This document shows positions 1 through 15,334 of a DNA stretch of 15,362 nucleotides, in pieces (the stretch's first letter is position 1; each line of letters opens with the position of its first letter). The translations under genes and the position numbers were made by a program. Source of the DNA: Candidatus Methylomirabilis sp. (GTDB lineage Bacteria; DYJV01); NCBI GenBank assembly GCA_020722945.1, contig DYJV01000056.1:1-15362 (forward strand), given 5' to 3'. The notes below the pieces were generated by a model that was not told the DNA's origin, searched no databases, and saw only the letters and a list, made by a program, of their open reading frames with translations.

Positions 1-87
1 GTTTTTACCTGTTTTTACCTGTTTTTACCTGTTTTTACCTGTTTTTACCTGTTTTTACCTGTTTTTACCTGTTTTTACCTGTTTTTT
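1..87. repeat. Tandem array of 10-bp units with phased T-tracts
   Basis: Eight perfect copies of GTTTTTACCT fill bases 1-80, and a ninth T-tract (GTTTTTT) starts at 81. The array begins exactly at the window edge, so it may continue upstream. Each unit has a T5 run, so the A/T tracts recur every 10 bp, close to one helical turn. That arrangement is known to give intrinsic DNA curvature. The array could be a bent-DNA segment of a replication origin, a protein-binding iteron array, or an assembly or contig-end artefact. No ORF of note crosses it. The repeat itself is certain; its role is inference. Confidence 0.95.
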
Positions 88-146
88 AACTAGTATTTAA
101 CTAGTATTTAACTAGTATTTAACTAGTATTTAACTAGTATTTAACT
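85..146. repeat. Tandem array of 11-bp units (TTTAACTAGTA)
   Basis: Five perfect copies of TTTAACTAGTA run from 85 to 139, followed by a partial copy TTTAACT to 146. The unit contains the palindrome ACTAGT and directly abuts the 10-bp array, sharing its last T residues. The 11-bp period again places each unit on nearly the same face of the helix. AT-rich iterated 11- to 13-mers are typical of origin unwinding elements, so an origin role is a reasonable inference, but no initiator gene is recognised beside it. The motif AACTAGT recurs once more at 521-527, inside the adjoining structured region. Confidence 0.93.
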
Positions 147-155
147 GATTAACTG

Positions 156-560
156 TTTAGCAGAGCCCCCTCCTTTAGGTTCCCCCAAAATATTCATATT
201 TCAAATATTTTGGTGTTTACCATTCGGCTATTAGGGTTTTACACCAGTCGTTATTGTTAGTAATTCTTATTACCATGTCATTTGCTTACATAAATGTCGA
301 GTTCCGCATCTAGTGAGTCTGGTTCTCGCTTTTGCATATTATGTTCGTAGCGTATGAACAATAACCTTCCAACGAAAACGCTTATTCAATACAAGAATAA
401 AACGTCTTTGAGACATAGCTTCGCTAAGGACACCTGTCTCTAGCTGGGTACCTACGGCTGTAACAAGAGTCCATTTGGCTAAGATGGGTGTTACTAGCGA
501 TAGGATTAAGCGAAGTTATTAACTAGTTCCCTTCGCCCCTCAATGGACTGACTCCATTCG
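156..560 (+). ncRNA. Candidate structured non-coding RNA, class unknown
   Basis: No sizeable ORF covers this stretch. Bases 181-540 are about 39% G+C (142 of 360 counted by eye), clearly above the flanking genes. It is dense in inverted repeats: CCAAAATATT/AATATTTTGG (185-194/204-213), GTAAT/ATTAC (260-264/269-273), an 8-bp stem at 342-349/353-360 containing one G-U pair, TTATTC/GAATAA (382-387/395-400), GAGACA/TGTCTC (410-415/435-440) enclosing TAGC/GCTA, GCGAAG/CTTCGC (510-515/531-536) and AGTCCATT/AATGGACT (468-475/542-549). GTAACA/TGTTAC (460-465/489-494) would cross that last stem as a pseudoknot. The G-U pair works only if the + strand is transcribed, which is weak support for that orientation. 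I do not recognise a known family. It could be a large phage RNA or the structured part of a replication origin. Boundaries are approximate. Confidence 0.42.
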
Positions 561-631
561 CACTTTTAACAGTAATTTAAGAATAAAGGATTCTTTGAAT
601 TTTGTCAAGCATTTTTTTTAATTATTTTAAC

Positions 632-660
632 TTGACTTTTGTTTAATTTGGTGTTAAGTT
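632..660 (+). promoter_or_regulatory. Possible sigma70-type promoter of the helicase gene (weak)
   Basis: TTGACT at 632-637 is followed after 17 bp by TAAGTT at 655-660. The -35 is good and the -10 is poor. Transcription would start near 667, just before the AGGA ribosome site (676-679) of the chosen ATG at 689, and downstream of the alternative ATG at 662. GTCAAG (604-609) and CTTGAC (631-636) form a 6-bp inverted repeat overlapping the -35. Confidence 0.3.
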
Positions 661-7430: not shown

Positions 7431-7533
7431 ATGAATTTGTTAGGAAAAGATTCAGCAATTAGAAAAGAAACTAGATGATAAACAATTAAATGAAAATAAT
7501 TTTAATGAAAATGAAATAATTTTGCTTGACTAA
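7431..7533 (+). pseudogene. Mini-gene with an apparent frameshift in an A-run
   Basis: An ATG at 7431 has a strong GGAG (7421-7424) six bases upstream, but its frame closes after 15 codons (7476-7478). In the +1 frame a coding-like stretch (7444-7533) continues to TAA with a coiled-coil look, beginning EKIQQLEKKLDDK. Removing one A from the run at 7445-7448 would join them into a single 33-residue ORF ending ENEIILLD. This could be a sequencing error, a decayed small gene, or programmed frameshifting. The -35 of the next promoter (7526) overlaps its end. No function can be assigned. Confidence 0.35.
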
Positions 7534-7554
7534 TCGTTTATCTTATGTTATTCT
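7526..7554 (+). promoter_or_regulatory. Sigma70-type promoter of the SbcC/SbcD region
   Basis: TTGACT (7526-7531) is followed after 17 bp by TATTCT (7549-7554), with an upstream TG (7546-7547) in extended -10 position. Transcription would begin near 7561, giving a leader of about 186 bases before the GTG start at 7747. The leader contains the inverted repeat at 7568-7601 and repeats A and B. It is the strongest promoter candidate between the polymerase and the ligase. Confidence 0.66.
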
Positions 7555-7567
7555 ATTAAATATTCAG

Positions 7568-7601
7568 GATGTTAACAATAAATAATTGATATGTTAACAT
7601 C
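7568..7601 (+). promoter_or_regulatory. 10+10 bp inverted repeat just after the promoter (operator or leader hairpin)
   Basis: GATGTTAACA (7568-7577) and TGTTAACATC (7592-7601) are perfect inverted copies separated by 14 bases. Each arm contains the HpaI-type core GTTAAC. The element starts about seven bases after the predicted transcription start, so it could bind a dimeric repressor or fold as the first hairpin of the leader. Its right arm is part of repeat A. Confidence 0.6.
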
Positions 7602-7608
7602 TGTTATA
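7583..7608 (+). repeat. Repeat A, copy 1 (26 bp)
   Basis: 25 of 26 bases match copy 2 at 9288-9313; the only difference is G versus A inside the ATRTTAACAT core. In copy 1 the core is the perfect palindrome ATGTTAACAT. It lies in the leader of the SbcC N-half gene. A weak promoter reading exists (TTAACA at 7572, 17 bp, TAACAT at 7595), and TGTTATAAA at 7602-7610 resembles an extended -10. Confidence 0.85.
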
Positions 7609-7663
7609 AAAATTTAGACAATGTGTTCTTAAAGAATATATTTCTTGGTCTAATAGATTCTTT

Positions 7664-7735
7664 TATACTGGACGTATATTCTAGTATAAACCTCAGTTAA
7701 TAACCGGGTAACAGTTGTTAATGGAAATAAATCGG
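7664..7735 (+). repeat. Repeat B, copy 1: 72-base double-hairpin element
   Basis: 69 of 72 bases match copy 2 at 12742-12813. Hairpin 1 is TATACTGG / CTAGTATA (7664-7671 / 7681-7688), with one G-U pair. Hairpin 2 is TTAATAACCG / CAGTTGTTAA (7697-7706 / 7712-7721), around a GGTAA loop, with one G-U pair and one C-A mismatch. It ends 11 bases before the GTG of the SbcC N-half gene. Two of the three differences between copies keep base pairing, which suggests an RNA-level role such as control of translation or transcript processing. It matches no RNA family I recognise. Confidence 0.85.
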
Positions 7736-9093: not shown

Positions 9094-9280
9094 ATGTAGT
9101 TTATGTAATAACTTAAGAATGGTTTGGTATTTTAGATTAACTAATAGTAAAGTAATTGCTCTTTGTAAATATTGTATAGTTGAATTATTTGGTACTCTTA
9201 TAGAAAAATACAATGAAGAAAAGATGTTAAAATTAATAAATAAAACACATAAAACACATAAAAGACAACAAAAAGCTTGA
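9062..9280 (+). CDS. 72-aa zinc-ribbon-like small protein
   Basis: Starts at ATG 9062 inside the end of the SbcC N-half gene (32-base overlap), with AAGGG nine bases upstream. It has two CxxC knuckles, C12-x2-C15 and C36-x2-C39, spaced as in a single zinc ribbon, and a basic His/Lys/Gln-rich tail. I do not recognise a family. Its position between the two parts of the split SbcC, directly after a gene that also ends in a cysteine motif, makes a partner role in that complex possible, but this is inference only. Confidence 0.7.
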   Translation: MNILPDLKANKCSLCNNLRMVWYFRLTNSKVIALCKYCIVELFGTLIEKYNEEKMLKLINKTHKTHKRQQKA

Positions 9281-9305
9281 TAATAAGTAATTGATATATT
9301 AACAT
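9277..9305 (+). promoter_or_regulatory. Possible promoter ahead of SbcD
   Basis: TTGATA (9277-9282) is followed after 17 bp by TAACAT (9300-9305). The -35 overlaps the stop codon of the preceding small gene. The -10 lies inside repeat A, whose other copy can be read the same way (TTAACA, 17 bp, TAACAT). The match to consensus is moderate, so this may instead be a protein-binding site. Confidence 0.35.
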
Positions 9306-9313
9306 CTGTTATA
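9288..9313 (+). repeat. Repeat A, copy 2 (26 bp)
   Basis: Differs from copy 1 (7583-7608) by a single base, A for G, which breaks the perfect ATGTTAACAT palindrome. The left arm of the larger inverted repeat seen at 7568 is absent here. It lies just before the AGGAG of the 21-codon leader ORF and the SbcD gene, so the same element precedes both transcripts that encode parts of the SbcC/SbcD complex. Confidence 0.85.
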
Positions 9314-9325
9314 GGAGATTAATAA

Positions 9326-9391
9326 ATGTTTATATCGTCAAGAAAAACGATTAAGTATTTGGGAGTATGTACGAATACTTTGATAAAATAG
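9326..9391 (+). CDS. 21-codon leader peptide upstream of SbcD
   Basis: A short ORF starts at ATG 9326 with an excellent AGGAG (9313-9317) eight bases upstream, and ends at TAG 9389-9391. The peptide begins MFISSRKTIKYLG. Its stop codon overlaps the AGGA that serves the SbcD start at 9400, so ribosomes finishing the leader would be placed at the SbcD ribosome site. This looks like translational coupling or a regulatory leader. It has no recognisable domain, and the short length means chance cannot be excluded. Confidence 0.45.
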   Translation: MFISSRKTIKYLGVCTNTLIK

Positions 9392-12731: not shown

Positions 12732-12741
12732 AAGATTTTTC

Positions 12742-12813
12742 TATACTGGACGTATATTCCAGTATAAACCTCAGTTAACAACTGGGTAACAGTTGTTAAT
12801 GGAAATAAATCGG
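12742..12813 (+). repeat. Repeat B, copy 2: 72-base double-hairpin element
   Basis: Second copy of the element at 7664-7735, with three substitutions. Hairpin 1 is a perfect TATACTGG / CCAGTATA (12742-12749 / 12759-12766) with loop ACGTATATT. Hairpin 2 is a perfect TTAACAACTG / CAGTTGTTAA (12775-12784 / 12790-12799) with loop GGTAA. It fills most of the gap between the ligase and the gene at 12822. No promoter is evident, and it would lie inside a read-through transcript, which favours function as RNA. It ends exactly at the ATCGG that can pair with the next start codon region. Confidence 0.88.
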
Positions 12814-12823
12814 AGTTCCCGAT
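12809..12823 (+). promoter_or_regulatory. Hairpin masking ribosome site and start codon
   Basis: ATCGG (12809-12813) can pair with CCGAT (12819-12823), closing the loop AGTTC. The stem and loop include the CGGAG ribosome site and the first two bases of the ATG at 12822. A five-base stem is small, but together with the two upstream hairpins of repeat B it could form a translational switch. The SbcC N-half leader has no equal to this stem. Confidence 0.4.
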
Positions 12824-13208
12824 GAATAATTTGCCATTGATTTTGAAAGTCATAAAAGAAAAAAGTCCTATTATTCGTATTTCGTTTAAAGATGGAGTAC
12901 AAGCGTTTCAACCATTTGATGATCCCGGTGTTATTTTTACGAGAAAATATATACATTTCAAGAAAAATGGTGCAATTATTAAAACTATGACACCAAAAGA
13001 TACAACTGTCACAAAAACTACAAGAAAAGAAGTACCAATGATAGCAACATACGGATTAATGGAAGAAGAAAGATACTATAGTACAGAACATGTACATTGC
13101 ATAACAGTTATAGACGATTTTGAAGGATTGAAAAGATTTGAAGAAGAACTAAAAGAAATGTATGGCAAATTGGATAAAAAAATAAATAAAATAAATCAAA
13201 ATACTTGA
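12822..13208 (+). CDS. Unknown 128-aa protein downstream of repeat B
   Basis: No family recognised. The start ATG 12822 has CGGAG ending six bases upstream. The first 60 residues suggest a compact beta-rich fold (IRISFKDGVQAF, VIFTRKYIHFKKNGAIIKTM); the C-terminal third is helical and charged, ending with a Lys/Asn tail. There are no cysteine pairs or P-loop. The stop codon TGA is inside the -35 of the next promoter. Its leader carries the same 72-base element as the SbcC N-half gene, so the two are probably co-regulated, which hints at a job in DNA end processing or replication. Confidence 0.78.
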   Translation: MNNLPLILKVIKEKSPIIRISFKDGVQAFQPFDDPGVIFTRKYIHFKKNGAIIKTMTPKDTTVTKTTRKEVPMIATYGLMEEERYYSTEHVHCITVIDDFEGLKRFEEELKEMYGKLDKKINKINQNT

Positions 13209-15290: not shown

Positions 15291-15334
15291 AAAAAATAGC
15301 CCGTGGATATTTTTCCACGGGCTTTAATTATTTT
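15291..15334 (+). terminator. Intrinsic (rho-independent) terminator
   Basis: AGCCCGTGG (15298-15306) and CCACGGGCT (15315-15323) form a perfect 9-bp GC-rich stem with an 8-base loop, followed by a T-rich tract (TTTAATTATTTT). A six-A run precedes the stem, so the structure may also work for transcripts from the opposite side. It lies 14 bases after the last stop codon. Bases 15335-15362 contain nothing I can identify. Confidence 0.92.

What the first reader, a model, noticed from the sequence alone, without database searches (positions are those of the whole stretch)
156..560. A roughly 400-base structured RNA candidate of unknown class beside the repeats
The region has no gene, is about 39% G+C by hand count in an otherwise very AT-rich window, and contains at least eight perfect or near-perfect stems, including GAGACA/TGTCTC around a nested stem and an 8-bp long-range helix that would cross GTAACA/TGTTAC as a pseudoknot. 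That density and GC rise is what large phage RNAs look like. I could not place it in tmRNA, RNase P, group I intron or riboswitch classes.
Basis: partly seen in the sequence, partly recalled or inferred. Interest (0 to 1): 0.72.

Follow-up and report, generated by a model that had tools for sequence, protein, structure and literature searches.

The report
Conserved structured RNA at phage origin
A virus of bacteria carries a roughly 400-base folded RNA, unlike any catalogued family and far better conserved than the genes beside it, in a spot that looks like a DNA replication origin, so it may be the RNA that starts copying of the viral genome.

Summary
Window 146-575 is non-coding, 40% G+C in a 27% window, and folds into a real RNA, read on the minus strand. 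A second phage contig (L004; proteins mostly 73-85% identical) carries it at 87% identity, while neighbouring four-fold sites are 44-68% identical. Folded separately, the two minus strands share 90 pairs (simulated 30±11, 0/200); the plus strands share 29, the chance level. A TTGACA-17-TATTCT promoter is conserved upstream although its spacer diverged. No Rfam family matches; no sequence relatives were found in phage, plasmid or genome collections.

Anatomy: between divergent replication operons; promoter, ~390 nt of folded RNA, a G-tract holding the only G5 runs in 33 kb of this phage, then AT-rich 11-bp repeats (among the least stable DNA locally), near the cumulative GC-skew minimum. In a more distant relative (L032, ~50% identical) the same slot holds other repeats and weakly O-like initiator genes instead.

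Most likely mechanism (inferred): a ColE1-RNAII/T4-oriF-like R-loop origin, the RNA supplying the leading-strand primer (0.42). Rivals: trans-acting structured RNA, operon leader, DNA-level origin element. No transcript or replication start was observed; only two distinct homologues exist.

The parts
580..608 (-). Promoter of the RNA: -35 TTGACA (608-603), 17-nt spacer, -10 TATTCT (585-580); start of transcription inferred at about 573
   Evidence: Found by consensus scan in window and at L004 5423-5395 with the same hexamers and spacing but a diverged spacer. The scan count alone is not above chance; the conservation is the evidence.
146..573 (-). Structured non-coding RNA (5' end about 573, 3' end not known; conserved block ends near 146)
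   Evidence: 87% identity to L004 4961-5400; shared independent folds 90 pairs against 30 in simulations, minus strand only; alifold z -5.4 minus, -2.6 plus
542..558 (-). 5' hairpin AAUGGA/UCCAUU; GGUGGA/UCCACC in L004 (two compensatory pairs)
510..536 (-). Hairpin GCGAAG/CUUCGC, invariant
451..504 (-). Long helix CCUAUCGCU/AGCCGUAGG with inner AACA/UGUU and UCU/GGA
369..447 (-). Domain closed by CCAGC/GUUGG, holding GAGACAGGUGUC/GAAGCUAUGUCUC (compensatory G-C to U-A) and the 13-bp AAGACGUUUUAUUC/GAAUAAGCGUUUU helix
250..365 (-). Domain closed by GUUAUUGU/ACAAUAAC and UCAUACGC/GCAAAUGA; its tip (about 288-348) is the only fast-changing part, and it holds the UGGUAAU/AUUACUA hairpin
185..213 (-). 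3' hairpin CCAAAAUAUUU/GAAUAUUUUGG (11 bp)
166..186 (-). G-rich tract GGGGGAACCUAAAGGAGGGGG, identical in both phages; proposed R-loop anchor
   Evidence: Only runs of five G or C in 33 kb of this phage; role inferred
85..146 (.). 5.6 copies of an 11-bp AT-rich repeat TTTAACTAGTA; proposed unwinding element
   Evidence: only 0.5% of 60-bp stretches in the window melt more easily; L004 has related repeats, also in its lowest 1%
1..86 (.). 8.6 perfect copies of GTTTTTACCT, continuing into contig C79 of the same bin
632..660 (+). Back-to-back promoter of the helicase operon (TTGACT-17-TAAGTT); in L004 TTGACA-17-TAGGAT
   Evidence: By eye in window; found by scan in L004
689..2497 (+). SNF2-type superfamily 2 helicase, first gene of the rightward replication operon
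   Evidence: Pfam SNF2-rel_dom 1.9e-22, PHROG 62 DNA helicase 7.9e-65

Best explanation
The element is a phage-encoded structured RNA, about 410-430 nt, transcribed leftward (minus strand) from a host-type promoter at 608-580. Most likely it is the primer RNA of an R-loop replication origin. Proposed steps: RNA polymerase starts at about 573; the first ~390 nt fold into a conserved multi-domain structure; this fold plus the terminal G-tract (GGGGGAACCUAAAGGAGGGGG) keeps the nascent RNA paired to its template as polymerase enters the AT-rich 11-bp repeats; the displaced strand there opens; an RNase H activity leaves a 3' end that the phage family B polymerase extends, and the DnaB-type helicase loads on the displaced strand. 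Shown here: conserved structure, strand, promoter-like site, G-tract, low-stability repeats, setting between divergent replication operons, skew minimum. Inferred: transcription itself, R-loop formation, priming, RNase H processing, any role of the SNF2 helicase in removing the R-loop.
For: Conserved minus-strand structure. Much slower change than neighbouring genes: RNA 87% identical including its variable tip, four-fold sites 44-68% in eight genes. Conserved promoter. G-tract with the only G5 runs in 33 kb, followed by the least stable duplex. Cumulative GC skew minimum at window 569 and at L004 5239. Divergent replication operons: helicase, clamp loader, PolB, ligase, 5'-3' exonuclease to the right; DnaB, primase and RuvC in C79 to the left. 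In L032 the slot between the same two flanking genes holds 41/83-bp repeats, a Cro-like gene and two genes with weak O-initiator matches. Known precedent: ColE1 RNA II, a ~550-nt non-coding primer RNA (PMC5043065), with a G-rich stretch just upstream of the origin (PMC6317783); T4 oriF/oriG, promoter plus A+T-rich unwinding element, R-loop as primer, R-loops removed by the UvsW helicase (PMC3016281).
Against: No transcript, R-loop or replication start was observed. GC skew and the gap between divergent operons are confounded by gene orientation. Only two distinct homologues. T4 R-loop origins need no folded RNA, so structure is not predicted by the T4 model alone. No antisense RNA I promoter was found. 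The O-like matches in L032 are weak (Pfam 1.3e-3, PHROG 1.6e-4) and single-sequence structure models were useless (pLDDT 38). The phage encodes a DnaG-type primase, so an RNA primer is not strictly needed.
Confidence: 0.42

Rival explanations
1. A trans-acting structured non-coding RNA with its own promoter (in the broad style of GOLLD, ROOL or OLE: a free RNA acting through its fold, perhaps with a protein), whose place beside the origin is only genomic convenience.
For: Extensive multi-domain structure, own promoter, strong conservation. The variable tip with a conserved core is usual for free-standing structured RNAs.
Against: Not near tRNAs and no match to GOLLD, ROOL, OLE or any other Rfam family. 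Gives no reason for the G-tract, the AT-rich repeats or the skew minimum. No terminator follows the 3' end, so a discrete RNA would need processing.
Confidence: 0.28
2. A long structured 5' leader that regulates the leftward operon (riboswitch, attenuator or phage anti-termination element); transcription runs through the repeats into the left genes.
For: The RNA points at the left operon and no terminator was found before the repeats. Some phage anti-termination elements are folded leader RNAs (own knowledge).
Against: About 200-250 nt of tandem repeats and spacer separate the RNA from the first left gene in L004. No terminator, Shine-Dalgarno switch or adjacent start codon at its 3' end. No riboswitch match. 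L032 keeps the left gene without the RNA.
Confidence: 0.15
3. A DNA-level origin or replication-protein assembly site that folds as single-stranded DNA; no RNA is made.
For: Origin-like setting, repeats and skew minimum. Watson-Crick compensation suits DNA as well as RNA.
Against: The fold is conserved on one strand only (90 pairs against 29, the latter at chance), one-sided changes on that strand keep G-U pairs, and a promoter drives exactly that strand.
Confidence: 0.08
4. A short protein or leader peptide is encoded on the minus strand (91-aa ORF in L004).
For: An open frame of 91 aa in L004, with about 50 residues also open in the window.
Against: Frame broken by indels and stops in the window; substitutions mostly change the amino acid while keeping base pairs.
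Confidence: 0.02

Closest known systems
ColE1 RNA II (primer RNA of ColE1-type plasmids)
   Same: Long non-coding folded RNA from a host promoter, G-rich stretch near its 3' end, origin just beyond, no initiator protein gene at the locus
   Different: No sequence similarity found in plasmids; a T4-like phage with its own PolB, primase and DnaB; no antisense RNA I promoter found; tandem AT-rich repeats follow the RNA
T4 R-loop origins oriF and oriG
   Same: Promoter plus AT-rich unwinding element in a phage with T4-type replication genes; a superfamily 2 helicase is encoded next door
   Different: T4 origins need only about 100 bp and no conserved RNA fold (PMC3016281); here a ~400-nt structured RNA is strongly conserved; the neighbouring helicase is SNF2-type and not shown to be UvsW
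GOLLD and ROOL RNAs
   Same: Large structured RNAs encoded by phages, function open
   Different: No Rfam match; shorter; not near tRNA islands; sits at a putative origin
Human mitochondrial LSP-CSBII primer
   Same: Transcript, G-rich tract that stabilises an R-loop, then RNA-to-DNA transition (PMC6317783)
   Different: Unrelated genome and machinery; no long conserved RNA fold there
Lambda-type origins (iterons with an O initiator)
   Same: L032 holds repeats and weakly O-like genes in the same slot
   Different: No O-like gene at the locus or elsewhere in the bin by sequence search

Membership tests
Any Rfam family (tmRNA, RNase P, group I/II introns, riboswitches, GOLLD, ROOL, OLE, RNAI) | Covariance-model score at or above the curated threshold | tested here: not met
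   No match at gathering over the whole window; at E up to 5 only a chance PreQ1 hit in the repeats
Structured non-coding RNA | Base pairs conserved through sequence change, beyond chance and on one strand | tested here: met
   Minus strand 90 shared pairs against 30±11, 0 of 200; plus strand at chance; alifold z -5.4; 4 double and 5 single compatible changes, none breaking
Structured non-coding RNA | Transcribed | not testable with these tools
   Only a conserved promoter-like site; no RNA-seq
ColE1 RNA II-type primer | Long folded non-coding RNA from a promoter several hundred bases upstream of the origin | tested here: inconclusive
   RNA and promoter-like site present; origin position not measured
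ColE1 RNA II-type primer | G-rich stretch in the RNA just before the origin | tested here: met
   GGGGGAACCUAAAGGAGGGGG at 186-166 minus, only G5 runs in 33 kb of this phage
ColE1 RNA II-type primer | Antisense RNA I covering the first ~110 nt | tested here: inconclusive
   No plus-strand promoter-like site, though the 5' hairpin followed by T residues could end a plus-strand transcript in L004
ColE1 RNA II-type primer | Persistent RNA-DNA hybrid cut by RNase H and extended by polymerase | not testable with these tools
   Needs biochemistry
ColE1 RNA II | Sequence homology to known ColE1-type origins | tested here: not met
   No match among 72,556 plasmids
[quoted passage not shown]
   Promoter-like site at 608-580; repeats downstream of the transcript are in the lowest 0.5-1% of duplex stability
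T4-type R-loop origin | Replication starts there | not testable with these tools
   Skew minimum is only suggestive
GOLLD/ROOL | Model match and location near tRNA islands | tested here: not met

The most novel reading that the evidence does not exclude
A new RNA class: a phage replication origin in which a large, folded primer RNA with a terminal G-tract stands in the slot where a related phage keeps a protein initiator and its iterons, i.e. RNA-based instead of protein-based origin firing in a T4-like replicon.
Probability: 0.3. Interest if true: 0.82.

Novelty: new variant of a known kind. Interest (0 to 1): 0.62.

Why it matters
If the origin model is right, a phage with a full T4-like replication set starts copying from a folded primer RNA as ColE1 plasmids do, in the slot where a cousin appears to use an initiator protein. 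That would make exchange between RNA-based and protein-based initiation testable in one phage lineage. Even without the mechanism, it is a new conserved structured RNA outside Rfam with a defined strand, promoter and domain map.

Tried and rejected
Known RNA classes: rejected by Rfam scans. Coding on either strand: frames broken, substitutions mostly amino-acid changing. Plus-strand RNA: shared pairs at chance. More homologues: eight viral scans (protein and DNA patterns) gave only L003 (same sequence) and L004; the L029 pattern hit lies in unrelated sequence. Genome scans, 'relatives' searches and INPHARED/PLSDB blastn gave none or only short chance matches. Profile search over all fetched loci, including the relative L032, found no further copy. 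Single-sequence AlphaFold models of the L032 O-like proteins were too poor to use. 16S rRNA of the bin was not found, so the host stays unidentified. A possible pairing of the G-tract with GGUACCC was considered and dropped because it conflicts with better-supported helices. The perfect Shine-Dalgarno-like AAAGGAGG in the G-tract has no start codon after it.

Full report
What the window is. The window is the whole of contig C95 of an unnamed metagenome bin (2.5 Mb, 184 contigs). It is phage DNA: an SNF2-type helicase, clamp loader, family B DNA polymerase, SMC/gp46-like and gp47-like proteins, ATP-dependent ligase and 5'-3' exonuclease follow in order. The same sequence is in IMG/VR as contig 3300000227_000315, which starts inside the repeat array. 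Contig C79 of the same bin (L028) carries DnaB, primase and RuvC, points the other way, and begins in the same repeat, so it almost certainly lies immediately to the left. The finding therefore lies between two divergent replication operons.

Check of the observation. Positions 156-560 are 40.5% G+C against 26.9% for the window, essentially the G+C maximum. No ORF covers it. Single-sequence folding is only slightly better than dinucleotide shuffles (z -1.7 and -1.6), so structure could not be claimed from this sequence alone.

A homologue. A polymerase search found IMG/VR contig 3300028388_003030 (L004) with the same gene order around the locus. Upstream of its helicase the whole region is present. 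Over 439 aligned columns the identity is 87%, and nearly all divergence is in one block (window about 288-348). In eight neighbouring genes four-fold degenerate sites are 44-68% identical and whole-gene DNA 64-82%. The region is thus under much stronger constraint than coding DNA. The fast block inside it argues against a recent transfer.

Structure and strand. I folded both sequences separately, on both strands. Minus strands share 90 of 132/136 pairs; plus strands share 29 of 132/125. As a control I moved the observed substitutions to random positions of the same base within the same three blocks: 200 simulations gave 30±11 shared pairs on the minus strand (none reached 90) and 28±11 on the plus strand (89 reached 29). 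RNAalifold against column shuffles gives z -5.4 minus and -2.6 plus. In the 90 shared pairs, 4 change on both sides, 5 on one side, and none breaks; because these pairs were chosen as shared, this count is descriptive. The best examples are AAUGGA/UCCAUU to GGUGGA/UCCACC and GAGACA/UGUCUC to GAUACA/UGUAUC. With two sequences, covariation counts are small (23 of 500 shuffles reach them), so the independent-fold test is the main evidence.

Promoter. On the minus strand TTGACA-17-TATTCT lies at 608-580 and at L004 5423-5395, with identical hexamers and a changed spacer. The scan alone is not above chance; conservation is what counts. This puts the 5' end near 573, just before the first hairpin. 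A divergent promoter for the helicase operon lies back to back with it.

3' end and repeats. At its 3' end the conserved block reads GGGGGAACCUAAAGGAGGGGG, identical in both phages. These are the only runs of five G or C in 33 kb of this phage. Next come AT-rich 11-bp repeats; only 0.5% of 60-bp stretches in the window melt more easily. L004 has related repeats in its lowest 1%. The array units differ between the phages while the RNA does not. No intrinsic terminator was found before the repeats. The cumulative GC skew minimum is at window 569 and L004 5239; gene orientation alone could cause this.

A more distant relative. L032 (IMG/VR 3300005939_000028; helicase 53%, clamp loader and polymerase 49% identical) keeps the same flanking genes, the helicase to the right and a small gene to the left (27-29%, E about 1e-6). 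Between them it has no such RNA but 41/83-bp repeats, a MerR-like gene, a Cro-like gene and two genes with weak matches to phage O-type initiators (Pfam Phage_rep_O 1.3e-3; PHROG 678 1.6e-4). Neither O-like gene has a match in the window, C79 or L004, and the second has none in the bin. If those weak matches are right, the slot is an origin locus, and the RNA sits where a relative has an initiator.

Mechanism. ColE1 has no initiator protein: a non-coding RNA started 550 bp upstream opens the origin and is the primer (PMC5043065), and a guanine-rich stretch just upstream of the origin is essential (PMC6317783). T4 oriF and oriG consist of a promoter and an A+T-rich unwinding element, the transcript stays as an R-loop and primes the leading strand, and the UvsW helicase later removes the R-loops (PMC3016281). 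Here the order promoter, folded RNA, G-tract, AT-rich repeats matches an R-loop origin, in a phage with T4-type replication genes. I consider this most likely (0.42). Transcription, hybrid formation, priming and RNase H processing are all inferred. A trans-acting structured RNA (0.28) fits the structure equally well but not the G-tract and repeats. A leader of the left operon (0.15) is possible because the transcript points that way, but the spacing is long and no switch elements were found. A purely DNA-level element (0.08) is disfavoured by the strand-specific fold.

Novelty. Nothing in Rfam matches, and there is no similar DNA in 50,697 phage or 72,556 plasmid records beyond short chance matches. 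One exact pattern in the species-level genome collection found nothing. It is a new RNA family with two distinct known members. If it is a primer RNA it is a new variant of R-loop origins rather than a new principle.

Noticed in passing
window 7620-7735, 12733-12829; L028 7126-7240, 9689-9768, 12861-12975: Dispersed intergenic repeat of about 80-120 bp, mostly 85-97% identical, with an invariant stem TATACTGGA..TCCAGTATA, in front of phage genes; a second module (GTTAACATC type) at window 7568-7611 and 9274-9333 and L028 2661, 7039, 12774.
   Followed up: partly
window 7442-7735: Copy (97% identical) of the last roughly 30 codons of DnaB plus downstream spacer from C79 9476-9768, inserted between PolB and the gp46-like gene, where L004 has methylase, DnaB, clamp, tRNA and RuvC: a scar of gene-cluster relocation or duplication.
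   Followed up: partly
L004 10004-12790: The family B DNA polymerase holds an in-frame intein-like insertion of about 155 residues at the YGD/TDS catalytic motif; the window polymerase has none.
   Followed up: no
window 166-186: The G-tract contains AAAGGAGG (the only AGGAGG in 33 kb of this phage), a near-perfect Shine-Dalgarno sequence with no start codon after it.
   Followed up: no
window 15296-15325: GC-rich perfect hairpin AGCCCGTGGA..TCCACGGGCT followed by T residues, a likely terminator at the contig end.
   Followed up: no
L028 11784-11859: Phage tRNA reported as Tyr with the unusual anticodon ATA; L004 has a tRNA at the corresponding place.
   Followed up: no
L028 17773-17905: 30-bp tandem repeats (TCCATAAACACCGTAGCACTGAAAAGCAAC) at the contig end, apparently coding on the minus strand.
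   Followed up: no
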